A stretch of 64,000 nt of DNA from an uncultured Acidimicrobiia bacterium (lineage in GTDB: Bacteria > Actinomycetota > Acidimicrobiia > Spongiisociales > Spongiisociaceae), in NCBI GenBank assembly GCA_958295745.1, contig OY282370.1, positions 1,834,548-1,898,547 of the forward strand. Direction: 5' to 3'. The notes under the pieces are model-generated. The model saw nothing but the letters and a program-made list of their open reading frames with translations. It was not told the origin of the DNA and did not search any database. Every line of letters begins with the position of its first letter. Position 1 is the stretch's first letter. Positions 45,712 through 54,316 of the stretch are shown here, one piece after another. Both the position numbers and the translations under genes were made by a program.

Positions 45712-46119
45712 ATGGCCAAGAGACGGATCCCGAGCGAGATGGAGGCGGTGTACGTCATCTCGGTGGCTGCCTCCCTGTCCGGCATGCATCCCCAGACCTT
45801 GCGCATCTACGAACGCCGGGGTCTGATCGAGCCGTTCCGCACGCCGGGGGGCACCCGCCGCTACTCGGACGCCGACCTGGAGCGGCTCTCGCTGATACAG
45901 CAGCTGACCGAGCAGGGGATAAACATCGAAGGTGTGAAGCGGATCATGAAGCTCGAAGCCGAGAACGAAGCCCTGCGCGCCCGGGTGATAAGGCTGCGCC
46001 GACGGCTGGAGGCCACCGAGAAGGCCGCGGCCGCCGCCGTCCAGGAGGCGCACCGCTCCTACAGAAGCGAGATCATCGTCCGCCGCGACCTGATGGGTTT
46101 CCCCGACCTGCCAGTTTGA
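45712..46119 (+). CDS. hspR: HspR, MerR-type repressor of the dnaK operon
   Basis: A 135-residue repressor. The N-terminal MerR winged helix includes HPQTLRIYERRGLIEPF and TPGGTRRYSDADLERL, and a coiled coil follows (AENEALRARVIRLRRRLEAT). In actinobacteria HspR binds inverted repeats before dnaK using DnaK as co-repressor. Being the last gene of the operon it would close a feedback loop. Family, size and context agree. A short hairpin at about 46136-46154 follows. Confidence 0.95.
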   Translation: MAKRRIPSEMEAVYVISVAASLSGMHPQTLRIYERRGLIEPFRTPGGTRRYSDADLERLSLIQQLTEQGINIEGVKRIMKLEAENEALRARVIRLRRRLEATEKAAAAAVQEAHRSYRSEIIVRRDLMGFPDLPV

Positions 46120-46172
46120 AAGTAGAAAGGGCAAGTCTCCTCTCGAGGGGGAGAATTGTGGAATAGCGCCCT

Positions 46173-46204
46173 GGTAAATTGTCGATCAGTCAGCCGGTAA
46201 ATTG
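46173..46204. repeat. Pair of direct repeats upstream of the third DUF4143-type ATPase
   Basis: GGTAAATTG occurs at 46173-46181 and 46196-46204, 23 bases apart (about two helical turns), 26-57 bases before the GTG at 46230. The flanks GTCGATCAG and CTGATTAG also look alike. This is consistent with a promoter-overlapping operator. Confidence 0.5.
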
Positions 46205-46229
46205 CTGATTAGGCGCTAGAGTCGCTCTC

Positions 46230-47489
46230 GTGGAACTGATCGATCGGCACCTCCGGCCTCGCATCGACGAAGCGCTCGATGCTTTTCGCGTGGTCGTCCT
46301 GCACGGGGCCCGCCAGTGCGGAAAGACCACGCTCGCCCGGCTCGTAACCGAACAACGGGGCGGTACGTACGTTTCGCTCGACGACGATGCGGCGAGGGAG
46401 GCGGCCCTTGCCGATCCGATTACCTTCCTCGCCGATCGACGCCGCCCGCTGGCGGTCGACGAGATCCAGCTCGGCGGCGACCGGGTCGTCCGCGCCGTCA
46501 AGCAGCTCGTGGATGCCGATCCGGCGCCCGGCCGGTTCCTGCTGACCGGGTCCACCAACTTCTTGACCGTTCCCGCCATCAGCGAGTCCCTGGCCGGACG
46601 GGTTCGCATCCTGCGGCTCTGCCCGCTGTCGGAAAGGGAGCTGTCCGGCGGGCCCCCGCCCGACATCGGCCGGTGGTTCGAGGGGCCGGCCGGCCCGGCG
46701 CCGCTCGAGCCGCTCGGACGGGATGAATACCTGCGGCGTTTGTGTCGGGGAGGCTATCCCGAAGCCGTTCGCCTCGACCCCGCCATGAGGCGGGATTGGT
46801 TCGAGAGCTACATGGAAACGGTGATCCAACGCGATCTGGCAGCCCTCGCCGACATTCGCAAGGTTGCTGCTCTTCCGCGCCTGCTGCGGTGGACGGCAAC
46901 GCTCGGCGGAGGCGAGATCAACGTGTCCGCCGCTTCCCGTCGGCTGGGTATCGACCGCGCCACGGTCCTTTCGTACCTGGAATGGCTCCATGCCGTCTTC
47001 CTGATTATCCGGGTTCCGGCCTGGTCGCGGAACCTCACCGCCAGGGCCGCCCGCTGGCCCAAGATATATCTCACCGACTCCGGTCTCGCGGCCGATCTGA
47101 TCGGCGCCGACCCGGATGGCCTGGCGGCGCCCGTCCACCCGGCCGCCGGGCCGCTCATCGAGACATTCTCGATAAACGAGATCGCCCGGCAGGTCACAGC
47201 CTCGCCCGACCGCATCGATCTGTACCACTACCGCGATCACCGCGGTCATGAGGTGGACCTGATCCTGGAAAGACCCGACGGGACGATCGCCGCCGTAGAG
47301 GTGAAGGCAACTCGGTCTCCCACCTCCGCCCAGCTGGGCCATGTCCGCTGGCTGAGAGACAGGATCGACCGCGCCGCCCCCGGCCTTTTCAAAGCGGGGA
47401 TACTCCTGCACACCGGCAACCAGGCCGTTACGGTCGGCGACAGGCTCCACATGCGACCCATCCAAACCCTCTGGCAACCTGACGGGTAA
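46230..47489 (+). CDS. AAA ATPase with DUF4143 nuclease-like C-terminus (copy 3)
   Basis: A 419-residue protein of the same architecture as the ones at 7495 and 12462. Walker A is GARQCGKT (26-33), then RPLAVDEIQLG, FLLTGSTNFLT, GGYPEAVRL, LTDSGLAADLIG and EVDLILERP with AAVEVKAT at the nuclease-like end. The GTG start is used. It sits between the chaperone operon and the convergent helicase gene (22 bases from the helicase stop), so it forms the left edge of an accessory block. Function unknown; the C-terminal half could bind or cut nucleic acid. Confidence 0.88.
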   Translation: MELIDRHLRPRIDEALDAFRVVVLHGARQCGKTTLARLVTEQRGGTYVSLDDDAAREAALADPITFLADRRRPLAVDEIQLGGDRVVRAVKQLVDADPAPGRFLLTGSTNFLTVPAISESLAGRVRILRLCPLSERELSGGPPPDIGRWFEGPAGPAPLEPLGRDEYLRRLCRGGYPEAVRLDPAMRRDWFESYMETVIQRDLAALADIRKVAALPRLLRWTATLGGGEINVSAASRRLGIDRATVLSYLEWLHAVFLIIRVPAWSRNLTARAARWPKIYLTDSGLAADLIGADPDGLAAPVHPAAGPLIETFSINEIARQVTASPDRIDLYHYRDHRGHEVDLILERPDGTIAAVEVKATRSPTSAQLGHVRWLRDRIDRAAPGLFKAGILLHTGNQAVTVGDRLHMRPIQTLWQPDG

Positions 47490-47511
47490 CGAGCAACCGG
47501 CTCATCTCAAC

Positions 47512-50500
47512 TCAGCTCTCGCCGAATCCTTCCAGGTGCTCATCGACCCGCTCTGCCCAGGAGCCTTCCCCGGAGATGATTCCAGGCCGAGGCCGGACAT
47601 TGTCATCGGCCGTTGACAGGGCGGTCTTCGGGTATATGACGGCCATGCCGAGTATCTCCAGGGAGGAGCGAAGGCCGCTCCTCTGTTCTATCTCCGCCAG
47701 ATTTGATCGGGTCTCTTCCGCGAGACGGCGGTTCCAACCGCTGTAGAGGGTTCTCAGTTTGGAGTTCAGATCTTCTTTTGCCAGCTGGCGCTCGTTACGG
47801 ATTACTTGGCGTTCGGCATGGGATTTCACAGCCCGATTCGCCTTTTCGATGAGGATCTTTTCACGGGCTACGAAGGTGTCCGTGATGCTCTTGAACTGAT
47901 CCAGCAGGGTCTGTTCGGCCCGCGTCTTCAGGGTTTCCACATCGATGGAGGTTTCCGTATGCCCGGTCTCGGGCGACGACAACGCTTTCATCAATTCCTG
48001 CGCCCGTTCGACCGAAATGGGGTCGGCCCTTCCCGTCGTACAGTCGACGGCAGCGCATAGAAGCTCCACTCTCTTGGTATAGCCTTCCAGGGATCCCACC
48101 GCCCAGACCAGCATCGTGGTTTGGTCTGTCATCTCCGGCGGTGCCACGCTCCGGCACCATGGAGTGTCGGAGATCGGGCTTCCCGCCAGGTGTCTGGCCA
48201 GCAGCACCAAGGGATGGCGGATGTGGGCGAAGTCGACTCCCTCACCCCCCTCCACGAACGAGACCGATATGCTCCTGGATTGGCTGACCCGATTCCTGAA
48301 GCGGACTATCTCCGTGCGCGCATAGTGAGTCGCGGGGTATGCCTGCAGAAGTCCTTGGAGCGCGCCGTGAAGATCGTCGTTCCTGAGCACCTTGAACTCG
48401 CCCGTAGCAGCGGTTCGCTTCATGCAGCCGGGAAGACGACGCTCGATTGAGGCGTACACGAACTCGGCGAGTTCTTCGGGAGACAGGAATCTGGCTTCGG
48501 CCTCCTTGATTTCCTGTTGATCGGACTCGATCAGCTGGCGGCCCTGCGTCGAGATCACCCCTGATTCGGAAATCGATTCCCGCTGCAGTCTCTGGTTCTC
48601 GATTACCTGGCCGATCTGGTCGAGGCGTATCTCCTGCTGGCGGGGGGTCAGGTCGCGGGTGAACACATCCCTTCTGAACGAGGTGATGCGCTCTCCGAGT
48701 ATCACCTCCATATCACCCAGAGCCCTCTCGAAGATGTTCAATCTCGTATAGAGCCGGTCCAGGATCCTCGATTCGATAGTCCCGACGCTGGCCAGGTTCC
48801 CGACGTAGATCTTGTTGGAGGCTTGGCCGATCCGGTCGCAGCGTCCGATTCGCTGCTCGACGCGCATCGGGTTCCATGGGAGGTCGTAGTTGACGACCAC
48901 ATGGCAGTGCTCGAAGTCGAGCCCTTCGCCCGCCACCTCGCTGGCGAGCAGGATCTGGAACTCTCCCCGTCTGAACTCGGCCGCGATCCGTTCCCTGCTT
49001 TTCTCGCCGCGGCGGCAGTCCTCGTCCCTGGCCGGCGTGAGCCCGTACATCAGCTCCAGTGAATACCCGCTCGCCCGAAGCTCCCGCACGAGATAGTGGA
49101 GGGTGCCTCTGAAGGTCGAGAAGATGATCGCCCGGTCCGCCCGCAGGTCGCCGAACACATGAGCGAGCAGCTCGTGGAGAGCCTTCAGTTTCTTGTCCTC
49201 TGATCCGAGAGCCGCCCGGGCGAGCGGCGTCAAAGTGTCGATCTCGCCGCGGGCGAATCGAGCGCTGTAGTCATCTTCTTCGTCCTCGGCCGCATACTGC
49301 AGGATCTCGGACGCCACCGCGGGGACACAGCTGGCGGTTCGCCGCTCCGGCATCTGCGTCACGAAACCGGGCGGGTTTCCCTCCCTTAGGGCTCGTTCCA
49401 GACATATTTGATAGATCTCCCGGTAGAAGGCATCCTCTTCCGGGGTGAACTGCACCACGTTGGTGATGGCTTCCCTGGTCGGCCTGTTCTCATCTACGTC
49501 CGACCGAAAGGTTCGCGTCATGTGGGGGCTCAGCACCTGCAGGTCGCGGGCCGAGTCGATGACTACCGTTCGTTGCCTTCTGTCCGTTAGGTCCGACCCG
49601 GCCGCCAGCTGTCGGAACCCGCTCCAGCCCGGCCGATCTCGGCCGCCGCCGACTTCCAGCTTGTTCAGCAAGCGATCGGCCTCCTGCTTCCATCCTGGTG
49701 GACGGTGCCTGACGACGCGAACCCAGTCGTTCAGCCGCATGTCCCAGTACAGCTGTTCTTCGAGCAGTCCCGGGTCGGCGGCTACGTCCACACCCAAAGC
49801 GCTCATCAGGTGAACGATGTCCATCAGGCTGGTCTGCAACGGGGTGGCGGTGAGGAAGGCCGCTGCCTTCGAGTGTTGGCAGACGAACACAGCCAGGGAG
49901 TGGGACAGGGTGTCGGGGTTGCGTAGGTGATGTGCCTCGTCGAAGATGACCAGATCCCATGATATGGAAGACTCGCTCAACCTGGTCAGGTGTTCTTCGG
50001 TTCTGATCAGCTCAAGGTTGACGATGGACTTGGCGAATCTGGGAGGCAGGACACCGTCGCGTTCCAACGACACCAAGGCCTGCCGCAAATCTCCGGATGC
50101 CATCGGTTCGAGTCGAAGGTCGAACCGTCGATGCATCTCATCCTGCCACTTCCCCATCAGGGACTTCGGGCAGATCACCCAGACGTTCTCGAGGCCGTTC
50201 TTCGACCTGGACTCCAATTCCGCCCAGATCAAGCCCGCCTCTATTGTCTTTCCTGTACCCACCTCGTCCGCGATCAAAAGCCGATGGTCCGGCGACTCCA
50301 AGATCTTCTTGACCGGCAGGAACTGGTGGTAGTAGAGATCAGTCCTCGAAGCCTTGTAGGAGAAAAGCTGATCCGTGAGAGGATGTTCCAACCTCCGCCA
50401 GGTGAGGTAGTTCCTCAGGTCGCGAGGACTCATCTCCGTAATACCGGGCACCGGTTCGAGCTCTGCAAGAGGTACGAGTTTGTCAGAACCGTCTATGAAT

Positions 50501-50595
50501 ACCCTGGCGTGTTCACCATCTATCGCGATGACCCACCCGATAGTGGATGGATCAGCCCGGTATCTTACTCTCATATTGGGGCCTAGATCAATCAT
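47512..50595 (-). CDS. SNF2/RapA-like helicase of a putative defence pair
   Basis: A superfamily 2 ATPase of 1027 residues. A small N-terminal barrel (1-50) leads into the SNF2 core: Walker A DEVGTGKT (110-117), ICPKSLMGKW, DEAH at 219-222, LTATPLQTS. The second lobe has AIIFSTFRGTLHYLV, LASEVAGEGLDFE and QRIGRCDRIGQ. A long C-terminal part (about 640-1027) is helical and charged. The ATG at 50595 overlaps the stop of the upstream sacsin-type gene as ATGATTGA, so translation is coupled; an upstream ATG at 50637 would need a 50-base overlap. It probably remodels or translocates on nucleic acid for its partner. Confidence 0.88.
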   Translation of the reverse strand: MIDLGPNMRVRYRADPSTIGWVIAIDGEHARVFIDGSDKLVPLAELEPVPGITEMSPRDLRNYLTWRRLEHPLTDQLFSYKASRTDLYYHQFLPVKKILESPDHRLLIADEVGTGKTIEAGLIWAELESRSKNGLENVWVICPKSLMGKWQDEMHRRFDLRLEPMASGDLRQALVSLERDGVLPPRFAKSIVNLELIRTEEHLTRLSESSISWDLVIFDEAHHLRNPDTLSHSLAVFVCQHSKAAAFLTATPLQTSLMDIVHLMSALGVDVAADPGLLEEQLYWDMRLNDWVRVVRHRPPGWKQEADRLLNKLEVGGGRDRPGWSGFRQLAAGSDLTDRRQRTVVIDSARDLQVLSPHMTRTFRSDVDENRPTREAITNVVQFTPEEDAFYREIYQICLERALREGNPPGFVTQMPERRTASCVPAVASEILQYAAEDEEDDYSARFARGEIDTLTPLARAALGSEDKKLKALHELLAHVFGDLRADRAIIFSTFRGTLHYLVRELRASGYSLELMYGLTPARDEDCRRGEKSRERIAAEFRRGEFQILLASEVAGEGLDFEHCHVVVNYDLPWNPMRVEQRIGRCDRIGQASNKIYVGNLASVGTIESRILDRLYTRLNIFERALGDMEVILGERITSFRRDVFTRDLTPRQQEIRLDQIGQVIENQRLQRESISESGVISTQGRQLIESDQQEIKEAEARFLSPEELAEFVYASIERRLPGCMKRTAATGEFKVLRNDDLHGALQGLLQAYPATHYARTEIVRFRNRVSQSRSISVSFVEGGEGVDFAHIRHPLVLLARHLAGSPISDTPWCRSVAPPEMTDQTTMLVWAVGSLEGYTKRVELLCAAVDCTTGRADPISVERAQELMKALSSPETGHTETSIDVETLKTRAEQTLLDQFKSITDTFVAREKILIEKANRAVKSHAERQVIRNERQLAKEDLNSKLRTLYSGWNRRLAEETRSNLAEIEQRSGLRSSLEILGMAVIYPKTALSTADDNVRPRPGIISGEGSWAERVDEHLEGFGES

Positions 50596-53500
50596 TGAGT
50601 AGTTTTTCTGTCTTGAGCAGACGGCAAAGATATTCACGGTGTGGTCTACTGAATAGGATCGTTTCGATTATTTGCTCTGGCTTGGGTTCCCAGTTGAGAT
50701 ACAGGTTCGAAAACCTGATAGCGACCCGGGTAAGTGTGTCATCGTTGATTGAATCTGTAGAAGGACAAAGTATATCCTGCAGTTGGTCTACTAAATTATC
50801 TTTATCGATTGTTTGTTGGGTATCAGGGTGCAATAGGTCCCATTGGCCGTAACTGATCAGAGTGTAATGCCATCCACAAAGGCTCAGCCGATTACCAAAG
50901 TGATTCGTAAGTGAATGTTCCGCAGGTTTGACGATATGGGAAGCGAATATGTGTAGGTTGCCTTTTCTGGTCAGGAAGGACGAACCACATATTTGACACC
51001 GCTTTCCATAATCCTCCTTTAGCATAGTCTCAAATTTTTCAGCTCGTTCTTCAGCCTCTGGGCCAGGTGTAGATGATACTACATTCTGGATTTTAGGACT
51101 TCCTACCTTTCCTGAGCTAGCCGACGAGATAGTGTCTTGAACAGCTGATTCAACAGTCTTGGGTCCTCCTGAAGATATAGCAACGGGTTCGTCAGGGCCA
51201 GGGACTGGATCAATTGTCATTGCTTCGGCAAGTTGTTCTACAAACCGGGAATCATCACTAGGTACCTTATGAGCCAGTTCGGTATCATCTCTCTCTTGCT
51301 TAGTAGGCAAAAAATCACCAGGTGTTTTACCTTGTTTTTCCAACTCTGCTATTACACTAAGCCATTTAGGGTCAATGTCAGCTTCTTGCAACGCTTGGTC
51401 TAATTGAGGCAATTTAAATTTGATAATAGAAAGTAAGACGGGATCCTTTTCCCAGCCGAGATCATCAAAAAAGATATCGCTAGGAGGCTTTAAATTTAGA
51501 TCATCATATATATCAGGTATCCAAGCATAGGTACGTAATTGTTCTATAAAAGCAGCTTCGTCTGTTTCTCGGTAGTGGTCTTTATGACGAGTCCAGGTAT
51601 ATGTTGCTATAAATATGCTTGGATATTCTTCCTTTATGCTTATAAGCTCTTCCCATAGGAGCTTAGAAACCCGCTTACGCTGTTCAATATCAAGAGAAGA
51701 TATCCGTTCTAGTACATATTGTAATTCTCGAAGATCCCAATCAGTGAATCGCTCATTTGTTCCTGGTGTTTGTCTTTTGTTTTTTAATCTTTGCTTCTTT
51801 TCCTTCGACATGATTACTTTAATCGGATTTAAATGTTTCATAGCTCCGCATTTTTTAAGTAGGATGCGCATTTCTAGTAACTTGGTGTAGTTTTCATCTA
51901 TAAAACGGACATTATTTCTGCCAGCAAGTAATTCGTTAAGTCGTTTTGTTCGAAAATATAATTCGCATGGTTTCGATAAAAAAACTCTATTGTTATTATC
52001 TAAAGATAGAACAAATTCGGTTTGTTTCAGTTCGTATAATAACCGGTTTTTTTGTGCTTGACTATCAGTCTCATAGGCACGAGTTATTCGTGTTAGATCT
52101 CTTTCGTATTCAGTTATATCAATATCCTCAAAGTATTTGTTCCGATATTTTGGTAAAACATAACGAATAACATCATCTACAAGATCCGGTTCTCTTAGCC
52201 CTAGGTATTTAAGGAATCCAATGGTGTTACTATTACAGATATTAGGGTGAACAGTAGGAAAACCTGTTTTCGTTTTACTTGGTAGGTATACTTCTTCATG
52301 GGGTGTTACATGGTTTCCATTTTTAAGCCTGATAATAGGCAAAGATTTGAACAGATAACTCAATCCCTTACGGTCATTAATAAATTTATAAAAGTTAACT
52401 ATCCATTCTTCAGGTTGGTCTTCTAAGAATTTTTGATTGAGTTGCCTTAACAGTACTTCTGGAGTTATCTGCCGAACCTTCAATTCACGTAGGAGGTAAT
52501 CATATAAATCTCGCGTACGATTTCGTGTAATATTGCTATCAAGCCAGGCCAGCCTTTTATCCGTATTATAGATTACGGAAAGCTGCTCTATCGATAGCAA
52601 TTCATGTATCTCCTTAGATCTGCCCAACAGTGCCTCGTTAGCAGATACGTATTGACCTTCCTGAGTAGGTAGTAGTGGTTCAGATTTTAATAGTTCTTTT
52701 ACAAAGTTAAATAGAAAATCGAACCTGCCACCTATTTGTTGGAATGGTAGACAATTTAGTACATCAGTACCTAATTTGCCTACATCTCGCATCCAACAAA
52801 GGGCATCGCGAAGTAACAAGGCGGTTTCTCTTACTAGATGTTTATTCCATGGATTGTCTGGTATTGATTCCCGGCTCAATGTAGTTTGATAAGGTCCCTG
52901 TACAGTAAATTTCAGTCCAGTATCTTCTACTGTGGGAAAATAGGCTACCAAATTGGATCGATTCAACGGTACCATACCAGTATTAGAATTCAACAAGAAA
53001 GCAATTTCGACATAACCTGCTCCCTCGTTACTATTAGACACCGGGTGGGAGAAAATCAACCAATCCTCGTTTTGTTGAATCTCTTCATTGATCTGCTCAA
53101 TAAGCGTAATATGACGAGTAGTATCGTTGATAGATTCTGATTTTCTGCGATAGAAACCAGATATGTAATCCTCCCCGGACATATAATCCTCAATAATATA
53201 TTGGATCTCGTCAATTTCTCGCAGGAAAAGAAGCTTACGAGCTTCAAGATTTTCTAATCCATCAGCTATTTTTTCATAGCTTTTGCGTTCTTTGCCGGAT
53301 ATGAAAGGAAGTAAAAAAACGGTCTCATCAAGGTTTCGATTAATGGGTGATACTTCCTTGGGGTATATAGCCTTATTTATGATAAAGTCGACAGCATAAT
53401 CTCCTGACCCAGAATGTATGGCTGGGTGTTCTGTATATCTGTAGACTGATTTGAAACCCATGCCAAAACGGCCAATATTGGTCAGTTCATCTTTTGTGGA

Positions 53501-53779
53501 CACACCTATGCTACAGATTGCTCGAACATCTCTTTCATTAAATGGAACACCAAAATGGCTAATACGAAGTTGATTCTTGGATAAATAAAACTTAATTGTT
53601 CTACGATTCCATTGTCGTCCTCTTCGCCTGATTGAATCTTCAGCATTTTGTAATAATTCAAATATGAAATGTGTATTATCAGAGTATATAGTTTGAGAAA
53701 CAAACTTCAATAAGCGATCAAAAGATTCATCCTTCTTCTTTTCGCTTTCCTCATTTATTTGTTGTAAATTAATAGACAT
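50588..53779 (-). CDS. Sacsin/Hsp90-like ATPase with C-terminal HNH-like domain
   Basis: A 1063-residue protein. The N-terminus is a GHKL ATPase of the sacsin type: FELLQNAEDS (E41, N45, D48), FGVPFNERDVRAICSIGVST and IGRFGMGFKSVY (102-113). The middle (about 200-900) is long and unassigned, with a Ser/Pro-rich linker near 850-910. The C-terminus has CQIC (C928, C931), ASHIVKP (H948) and GNRLSLCGWH (N963, C968, H971), which reads as an HNH endonuclease with a zinc knuckle. The gene is strikingly AT-rich against its GC-rich neighbours, with many ATA, TTA and AAA codons, a sign of transfer. It is coupled to the helicase gene. A defence role is inferred, not shown. Confidence 0.85.
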   Translation of the reverse strand: MSINLQQINEESEKKKDESFDRLLKFVSQTIYSDNTHFIFELLQNAEDSIRRRGRQWNRRTIKFYLSKNQLRISHFGVPFNERDVRAICSIGVSTKDELTNIGRFGMGFKSVYRYTEHPAIHSGSGDYAVDFIINKAIYPKEVSPINRNLDETVFLLPFISGKERKSYEKIADGLENLEARKLLFLREIDEIQYIIEDYMSGEDYISGFYRRKSESINDTTRHITLIEQINEEIQQNEDWLIFSHPVSNSNEGAGYVEIAFLLNSNTGMVPLNRSNLVAYFPTVEDTGLKFTVQGPYQTTLSRESIPDNPWNKHLVRETALLLRDALCWMRDVGKLGTDVLNCLPFQQIGGRFDFLFNFVKELLKSEPLLPTQEGQYVSANEALLGRSKEIHELLSIEQLSVIYNTDKRLAWLDSNITRNRTRDLYDYLLRELKVRQITPEVLLRQLNQKFLEDQPEEWIVNFYKFINDRKGLSYLFKSLPIIRLKNGNHVTPHEEVYLPSKTKTGFPTVHPNICNSNTIGFLKYLGLREPDLVDDVIRYVLPKYRNKYFEDIDITEYERDLTRITRAYETDSQAQKNRLLYELKQTEFVLSLDNNNRVFLSKPCELYFRTKRLNELLAGRNNVRFIDENYTKLLEMRILLKKCGAMKHLNPIKVIMSKEKKQRLKNKRQTPGTNERFTDWDLRELQYVLERISSLDIEQRKRVSKLLWEELISIKEEYPSIFIATYTWTRHKDHYRETDEAAFIEQLRTYAWIPDIYDDLNLKPPSDIFFDDLGWEKDPVLLSIIKFKLPQLDQALQEADIDPKWLSVIAELEKQGKTPGDFLPTKQERDDTELAHKVPSDDSRFVEQLAEAMTIDPVPGPDEPVAISSGGPKTVESAVQDTISSASSGKVGSPKIQNVVSSTPGPEAEERAEKFETMLKEDYGKRCQICGSSFLTRKGNLHIFASHIVKPAEHSLTNHFGNRLSLCGWHYTLISYGQWDLLHPDTQQTIDKDNLVDQLQDILCPSTDSINDDTLTRVAIRFSNLYLNWEPKPEQIIETILFSRPHREYLCRLLKTEKLLND

Positions 53780-53875
53780 TGTTTCCGTTCTTTCTGTTGT
53801 TTAGATGATCCAAAACCGAAGAACTTGGAATCAAATTGGTCACCGCCGGGATTCTCTTCTATGCTATGAATCGTG

Positions 53876-54316
53876 ATGAGTGAGCAGATACATCTTAGCC
53901 GGGGGAGGCCCAGGGTGGTGTTGCCGGTGCCTGACTCGGATCTGACGGCGTGGATCGAGGGGGCTTCGAGCCTGGAGCGGCTGGCGGAGGTGGCGGAGGA
54001 GCATCCGTATTCTATGGATGTATGGGCGGCCTTGGGCGGTCGGTACGAGGCGGAGGCGGAATCGACGACGGCTGTCGTTGTGGCGTATGCGTGTTACCGC
54101 ATCGGGTATCACCGGGGGTTGGACGCTCTCAGGAAGAACGGTTGGCGGGGCGCCGAGCTGGTGCGGTGGGCGGATGAACCCAATCGGGGATTCCTGCGGT
54201 GCCTGGCCGGACTCCAACGGCTGGCCGGACAGATCGGCGAGCACGAGGAAGAAGCCCGGTGCGCCGACTTCCTGCTTCAGCTCGACCCGGACTGGCCTCC
54301 GGCGGAGTTGCCCTGA
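53876..54316 (+). CDS. DUF3151 family protein
   Basis: A 146-residue cytosolic protein of a family known to me from actinobacteria. Seen: RVVLPVPDSDLTAWIEGA at the N-terminus, HPYSMDVWAALG, CYRIGYHRGLDALRKNGWRG and EPNRGFLRCLAGLQRLAG. The helical, TPR-like pattern suggests a binding protein. Its function is undescribed as far as I know. ATG at 53876 was chosen; GTG at 53873 is adjacent. It is divergent from the AT-rich sacsin gene and marks the return to ordinary chromosomal composition. Confidence 0.85.
   Translation: MSEQIHLSRGRPRVVLPVPDSDLTAWIEGASSLERLAEVAEEHPYSMDVWAALGGRYEAEAESTTAVVVAYACYRIGYHRGLDALRKNGWRGAELVRWADEPNRGFLRCLAGLQRLAGQIGEHEEEARCADFLLQLDPDWPPAELP

What the first reader, a model, noticed from the sequence alone, without database searches (positions are those of the whole stretch)
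47512..53779. Coupled pair: sacsin/Hsp90-like ATPase fused to an HNH-like domain, plus SNF2 helicase
Seen: the upstream gene (50588-53779) joins a GHKL ATPase head (FELLQNAEDS, IGRFGMGFKSVY) to a C-terminal C-x2-C ... H ... N-x4-C-x2-H domain; the helicase start overlaps its stop as ATGATTGA; the first gene is far more AT-rich than the chromosome. Known: prokaryotic GHKL/sacsin proteins, SNF2 helicases and HNH nucleases recur in defence islands. Inference: the two form a phage-defence or plasmid-exclusion module in which the GHKL part gates a nuclease and the helicase loads or senses DNA. I do not recall a named system with exactly this gene pair.
Basis: partly seen in the sequence, partly recalled or inferred. 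Interest (0 to 1): 0.85.

Follow-up and report, generated by a model that had tools for sequence, protein, structure and literature searches.

The report
Hsp90-like ATPase paired with helicase
Two neighbouring bacterial genes, one for an Hsp90/sacsin-like molecular switch ending in a broken DNA-cutting domain and one for a DNA-translocating motor, travel together across about nine phyla of bacteria and archaea and probably form a still unnamed defence module against phages or plasmids.

Summary
The first gene is 38% GC, the helicase 60%, the window 64%. The pair is real and recurrent: 25 further loci in about nine phyla, including archaea and plasmids, in either gene order, mostly abutting or overlapping. 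It sits in a 7.8-kb insertion between hspR and a DUF3151 gene that nearly abut in relatives; one relative has a restriction/defence island at the same site. The fold is HNH (McrA/TagI type), but the nuclease reading fails: TagI's metal-binding His (H254) is Y972 here and non-His in all 18 aligned proteins, and D258 is gone here too. Only the zinc site and base His (H948) remain. The Hsp90-like ATPase set (E41, N45, R303) is invariant in 41 of 41 relatives. Partner helicase and broken HNH go together; relatives without the helicase carry a DUF3883 nuclease-like tail, often in type III restriction operons. Closest named parts are Tiamat TmtA and DISARM DrmD; the pair belongs to neither. Best reading: an ATP-gated, probably non-nucleolytic DNA-sensing defence module. 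Untested against phages.

The parts
50588..53779 (-). Gene 1: sacsin/Hsp90-like protein, 1063 aa. N+M Hsp90-like ATPase about residues 15-440, helical/alpha-beta middle to about 815, low-confidence linker about 817-906, C-terminal zinc/HNH-like domain about 907-1063.
50591..51061 (-). C-terminal HNH-like (McrA/TagI-type) domain, residues 907-1063; zinc ligands C928, C931, C968, H971; base-like H948 and N963 kept; catalytic metal ligands replaced by Y972 and S976.
53387..53668 (-). Bergerat-type ATP site, residues 38-131 (E41, N45, D48, H75-x-G77, IGRFGMGFKSVY).
47512..50595 (-). Gene 2: SNF2/RapA-like DEAH translocase, 1027 aa; Walker A DEVGTGKT, DEAH box, motif VI QRIGRCDRIGQ intact; nearest named family DrmD.
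50588..50595 (-). 8-nt start/stop overlap ATGATTGA (translational coupling).
46120..53872 (.). 7.75-kb insertion between hspR and the DUF3151 gene: DUF4143 ATPase, helicase, sacsin-like gene. Empty (the two genes nearly abut) in at least 7 family relatives.
46230..47489 (+). AAA_14/DUF4143 ATPase, PADLOC candidate defence family PDC-S01, convergent with the pair and 22 bp from its end; probably same island, membership in the module not shown.
45712..46119 (+). hspR (left chromosomal flank; name from sequence and position beside grpE/dnaJ).
53873..54316 (+). DUF3151 gene (right chromosomal flank).

Best explanation
A two-gene anti-mobile-element (most likely anti-phage) module. Gene 2 is an ATP-driven dsDNA translocase of the RapA/DrmD type. 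Gene 1 is an Hsp90-like N+M ATPase that is proposed to close on ATP like other GHKL proteins; its C-terminal McrA-derived HNH domain has lost the catalytic metal site and is proposed to bind or read DNA, or to dock the helicase, rather than cut. Proposed cycle: the translocase engages invading DNA, the GHKL protein clamps it through the zinc/HNH-like domain, and ATP-driven closure blocks replication or transcription of that DNA or hands it to another nuclease. Shown here: the pairing, its coupling, the fold assignments, the conserved ATPase residues, the loss of the HNH metal ligands, and the island setting. Inferred: defence role, DNA clamping, and the absence of cleavage.
For: Pair conserved at 25 other loci in about nine phyla, abutting or overlapping in most, in both gene orders. 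Identities of the two proteins co-vary across 21 pairs (Mantel r 0.74, p 2e-4; partly shared descent). Hsp90 N+M fold (best Z 16.1) with E41, N45, D48 and R303 invariant in 41 of 41. HNH fold: EcoKMcrA E 5e-8, TagI Z 8.8; metal-ligand His lost in 18 of 18. Helicase partner goes with the broken HNH; relatives without it carry DUF3883 tails, 53 of 63 with the G(x)DL...ExK motif. Defence contexts: TmtA and DrmD profile hits, PDC-S01 neighbour, Qat beside a relative, type III R-M plus GajB-like UvrD genes, YprA-type and NERD-UvrD helicases upstream, plasmids, and the hspR-DUF3151 site holding a type IIG R-M/HKD-SNF2 island in a relative.
Against: No phage or plasmid assay exists. The helicase's nearest solved relative is RapA, an RNA-polymerase recycling factor. 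H75 replaces the adenine-binding Asp of Hsp90 in all 41 relatives, so nucleotide binding may differ. Relatives of the helicase at 32-35% identity also occur without a sacsin gene (L112, L113). The defence contexts were read case by case, not tested against a matched background.
Confidence: 0.55

Rival explanations
1. GHKL-gated HNH nuclease: the HNH still cuts, using H948 as base and unorthodox metal ligands, when the helicase delivers DNA.
For: H948 and N963 are kept in the window protein, H948 in all five sacsin-then-helicase members; zinc site intact; fold matches TagI and EcoKMcrA.
Against: The residue aligned to TagI metal ligand H254 is Y, F or S in these five and S, A, T or F in the other 13; D258 is S, Q or R in the five; TagI needs these residues for activity (PMC6212794). 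H948 itself is Y, E or Q in 13 of 18.
Confidence: 0.15
2. Housekeeping DNA repair or RNA-polymerase recycling module, RapA-like, with an Hsp90-like co-factor.
For: Closest solved relative of the helicase is RapA.
Against: Very patchy distribution (3 of 295 other genomes of the phylum), plasmid carriage, island insertion with an empty site in relatives, R-M and other defence contexts of relatives.
Confidence: 0.12
3. The pair is the sensing arm of a larger system whose cutting enzyme lies elsewhere (another gene at the locus or a host nuclease); the pair alone is not sufficient.
For: A 1129-aa TM0106/RecB-like nuclease-helicase follows the pair in Ensifer, a NERD-UvrD gene precedes it in L104, a YprA-type helicase in L100, and a small extra ORF sits between or before the genes in several loci.
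Against: These extra genes differ between loci; the window and the four Chloroflexota loci show no shared third gene.
Confidence: 0.15

Closest known systems
Tiamat (TmtA, PADLOC-DB)
   Same: Same sacsin-like head and middle region: TmtA profile E 2.2e-72 over residues 12-773.
   Different: TmtA profiles are 1302-1782 positions long; the window protein has no DUF3883 tail, ends in a broken HNH and is coupled to a helicase partner.
DISARM DrmD
   Same: DrmD-type SNF2 helicase: PADLOC E 1.2e-102, NCBIfam E 1e-83.
   Different: Scores 282 bits against a NCBIfam cut-off of 610; no DrmA, DrmB, DrmC or methylase beside it.
MORC/paraMORC restriction operons (Iyer 2008, PMC2292703)
   Same: GHKL ATPase next to SWI2/SNF2 helicase, often with HNH nucleases; a DNA-looping role was proposed there.
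   Different: The head here is of the sacsin/SACS type, the HNH is fused and degenerate, and no methylase or separate nuclease is conserved.
EcoKMcrA / TagI HNH domains
   Same: HNH fold with CxxC...Cxx(C/H/D) zinc site.
   Different: Catalytic metal ligands missing; no modified-base reading domain recognised.
Eukaryotic sacsin SR1 / Hsp90
   Same: Bergerat ATPase plus middle domain with catalytic Arg (PMC9880540).
   Different: Single repeat, bacterial/archaeal, fused to an HNH-like domain, paired with a DNA motor.

Membership tests
Tiamat (TmtA) | Sacsin-like head matched by TmtA profiles | tested here: met
   PDLC03972 E 2.2e-72, residues 12-773
Tiamat (TmtA) | Full-length match including the C-terminal DUF3883-type region (1300-1780 positions) | tested here: not met
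   No listed TmtA match has its best stretch beyond residue about 775 of the window protein; the DUF3883-tailed relative in L038 does match there (887-1051 to 1341-1510 of PDLC03969)
Tiamat (TmtA) | Anti-phage activity as a single gene | not testable with these tools
   needs a phage assay
DISARM | DrmD at or above the curated cut-off | tested here: not met
   NF038317 282 bits against 610
DISARM | drmA, drmB and drmC plus methylase adjacent | tested here: not met
   Neighbours are DUF4143 ATPase, hspR, DUF3151, BacA/UppP and SPFH; MZB-domain genes, a mark of YprA/DrmA/DrmB-type proteins, lie about 96 kb and 600 kb away
Active HNH (beta-beta-alpha metal) endonuclease | Fold and structural zinc site | tested here: met
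   TagI Z 8.8 over 101 residues; EcoKMcrA profile E 5e-8; C928, C931, C968, H971
Active HNH (beta-beta-alpha metal) endonuclease | Base His, Asn and metal-ligand His all present | tested here: not met
   H948 and N963 present, metal His replaced by Y972; 0 of 18 aligned proteins have it
GHKL/Hsp90-like ATPase | Catalytic Glu, Mg-binding Asn, Gly-rich lid motif and middle-domain Arg | tested here: met
   E41, N45, G103, G106, G108 and R303 invariant in 41 of 41; fold Z 16.1 to Hsc82; the adenine-binding Asp is His in all 41
MORC/paraMORC | Methylase or restriction genes beside a MORC-type GHKL+S5 protein | tested here: not met
   Pfam and NCBIfam assign the sacsin family, not MORC; no methylase or nuclease gene in the insertion

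The most novel reading that the evidence does not exclude
A new, widespread two-gene immune system in which an Hsp90-type ATP clamp with a catalytically dead McrA-type HNH reader works with an SNF2 translocase to block invading DNA without cutting it; a DUF3883-tailed sister form works with type III R-M genes, so that tail and partner are exchanged together.
Probability: 0.3. Interest if true: 0.78.

Novelty: new variant of a known kind. Interest (0 to 1): 0.55.

Why it matters
Hsp90/sacsin-like proteins are frequent but mechanistically dark parts of prokaryotic defence loci. This pair gives a minimal, portable two-gene test case, with members in cultured hosts (for example the Rhizobium bangladeshense and Methanomethylovorans hollandica plasmids, Planotetraspora, Desulfobacter latus), and predicts that an Hsp90-type switch plus a DNA motor can act through a dead nuclease domain. 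If true, it would show defence by DNA clamping or remodelling, and would give sacsin-type ATPases a DNA-conflict role to compare with the eukaryotic chaperone.

Tried and rejected
Single-sequence scan of genome contigs with the window protein found nothing; a profile of four found 464 relatives. Independent double origin of the pairing, suggested by the 86-row tree, was tested and dropped: holding all helicase-partnered rows together is not rejected (p-AU 0.68, 27 rows); of 4 independent pairs, 3 go the same way and 1 does not differ, too few for significance. The AU test on 86 rows did not finish. A swap of gene 1 into the window pair, suggested by 40% versus 67% identity, was not concluded: gene 1 evolves faster than gene 2 in nearly all pairs, and in L086/L091 the helicases are 92% but the sacsins 52% identical. 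No shared word of 7 nt or more was found between the two insertion ends. No broken helicase next to the HNH-type sacsin L092. Pfam has no HNH hit in gene 1; it needed the profile and the model. Paper searches for sacsin/GHKL with SNF2, HNH or anti-phage terms found no description of the pair; most subscription papers are not held.
Full report
1. Observation. Both reading frames, the motifs and the coordinates are as described. The upstream protein is 1063 aa; the C-terminal motif is C928-x2-C931, H948, N963-x4-C968-x2-H971. The helicase most likely starts at the ATG at 50595, overlapping the upstream stop by 8 nt. GC is 38.3% for gene 1, 60.1% for gene 2, 64.0% for the window. In all 20 other pairs measured the sacsin-like gene has lower GC than its helicase, so this is a recurrent trend, strongest here.

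2. What the proteins are. Gene 1 matches the SACS domain (PF25794, E 5.9e-12) and NCBIfam's sacsin ATP-binding domain (E 2.2e-22), and PADLOC's TmtA (Tiamat) profiles over residues 12-773. An AlphaFold2 model of the full protein (mean pLDDT 80.6) matches Hsp90 N and M domains (Hsc82, Z 16.1, 281 residues aligned), with GyrB and topoisomerase VI B close behind. E41, N45, D48, the glycine-rich lid motif and R303 are invariant in 41 of 41 relatives; I equate E41, N45 and R303 with E33, N37 and R380 of yeast Hsp90 from the profile alignment (first two) and from general knowledge of the LSRE motif (R303). H75, also invariant, stands where Hsp90 has the adenine-binding Asp; sacsin also departs there (PMC9880540). 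Gene 2 has SNF2 and Helicase_C domains with intact motifs; its best families are DrmD (PADLOC E 1.2e-102; NCBIfam 282 bits, below the cut-off of 610) and, among solved structures, RapA.

3. The HNH domain. Pfam finds no HNH, but a profile of 18 C-termini from helicase-partnered proteins (A3) finds EcoKMcrA (E 5e-8) and TagI (E 5.6e-5) in the PDB. The predicted C-terminal model (pLDDT 77.7) matches TagI first by Foldseek (probability 0.97, though its E-value is only 0.025) and by VIA-align (Z 8.8, rmsd 3.0, 101 residues), followed by other HNH nucleases (VcaM4I, Cas9, EcoKMcrA, Cap5). In TagI, H229 is the base, N245 stabilises, and H254 and D258 hold the catalytic metal; they are needed for activity; a CxxH variant of the zinc site is described as equivalent to CxxC (PMC6212794). 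Aligned to this, the window keeps H948 and N963 and a CxxC/CxxH zinc site, but has Y972 and S976 in place of H254 and D258. Across the 18, the H254 position is Y, F, S, A or T (never H) and H948 is kept only in the five proteins of the window's own subgroup. The archaeal relative L010 keeps the second His but has lost the first; the Rhizobium ones have lost both. So this is an HNH fold that has probably lost catalysis. That is a prediction from residues, not a measurement.

4. The pair recurs. A profile scan of 84,980 species' genomes found 464 relatives of gene 1; 80 loci were kept. With plasmid and same-family genomes added, 25 loci besides the window have a relative of gene 2 beside gene 1 (two of them only as a fragment at a contig end): Chloroflexota, Nitrospirota, Thermodesulfobacteriota, Latescibacterota, Binatota, Bacillota, Pseudomonadota, Actinomycetota and Euryarchaeota. 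Four Chloroflexota loci (L025, L026, L049, L061) share the window's order, with helicases 65-68% and sacsins 38-40% identical; the others have the helicase first. Most pairs abut or overlap; three have a 200-240 aa ORF between and one an inserted gene. Identities of the two proteins co-vary (Mantel r 0.74, p 2e-4, n 21), which common descent alone could also give. In the window's phylum the helicase family is rare (3 of 295 other genomes), and none of those three shows an adjacent sacsin gene (one is cut by its contig end); so the helicase family is wider than the pair.

5. Two forms. Every helicase-partnered gene 1 whose C-terminus could be read ends in the zinc/HNH-like domain (L018/L019 in a variant spacing); relatives without the helicase end in DUF3883 (53 of 63 with G(x)DL...ExK), a domain described as a restriction-endonuclease fold (PMC3710099), with the exception of L092, HNH-like without the helicase. 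About 40 loci, nearly all of them of the second kind, carry a GajB-like UvrD-PDDEXK helicase, many with a type III-like methylase and ResIII-type restriction genes. One origin of the helicase-partnered form is not rejected (p-AU 0.68).

6. Setting in the window. hspR and the DUF3151 gene nearly abut in at least seven family relatives; in the window 7.75 kb separates them: a DUF4143 ATPase (PADLOC candidate PDC-S01) and the pair. In relative G004 the same gap holds 16.5 kb with a type IIG R-M gene and an HKD-SNF2 helicase; in G006 it holds 22 kb of genes that I did not identify. The site therefore accepts islands, at least one of them defensive. The host is probably an actinobacterium (DUF3151 and hspR context, my inference).

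7. Mechanism. What is shown: a conserved two-gene unit, an intact-looking Hsp90-type ATPase, an intact SNF2 motor, a zinc-binding HNH fold without its metal ligands, and mobile, defence-rich settings. What is inferred: that it is immune; that the GHKL part clamps DNA; that the HNH-like part reads or docks. Iyer and colleagues proposed DNA looping for GHKL proteins in R-M operons with SF2 helicases (PMC2292703), which is the nearest published idea.

8. Verdict. Real, recurrent, not found under any name in PADLOC-DB or in the open papers searched; built from known parts (Tiamat-like head, DrmD-like motor, McrA-like tail). New variant of a known kind.

Noticed in passing
L038, L043, L059, L060, L065, L067 and about 35 more loci: A sister form of gene 1 with a DUF3883 tail sits in a conserved operon with a UvrD-PDDEXK (GajB-like) helicase, a type III-like DNA methylase and a ResIII-type gene across several phyla, and on three viral contigs (L105-L107). 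It may be an undescribed composite restriction system.
   Followed up: partly
window 46230-47489: AAA_14/DUF4143 ATPase, a PADLOC candidate defence family (PDC-S01, E 2.9e-142), in the same hspR-DUF3151 insertion as the pair; relative G004 has a distant DUF4143 gene at the same site.
   Followed up: partly
L086 and L091: Helicases 92% identical while the coupled sacsin-like proteins are only 52% identical, dropping to 21-32% around residues 500-800: strong diversification or recombination inside gene 1.
   Followed up: no
window 46120-53872; L117, L118, L119: The hspR-DUF3151 junction is an insertion hotspot in this family: 7.75 kb here, 16.5 kb with R-M genes in G004, 22 kb in G006, nearly abutting genes in seven others.
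   Followed up: partly
L128 (G000:C1:2480438-2480707): A 1716-aa frame with an MZB (YprA/DrmA/DrmB-type) domain elsewhere in the genome, possibly another defence helicase.
   Followed up: no
L112: Another relative of the helicase in the phylum lies next to genes matching HEC-06/Orf5/SspE-like and HEC-07/NsnC-like profiles, not a sacsin gene.
   Followed up: no
window 53555-53557 (codon of residue 75): Invariant His in place of the adenine-binding Asp of Hsp90 in all 41 sacsin-like relatives aligned (A4); nucleotide binding may be unusual.
   Followed up: no
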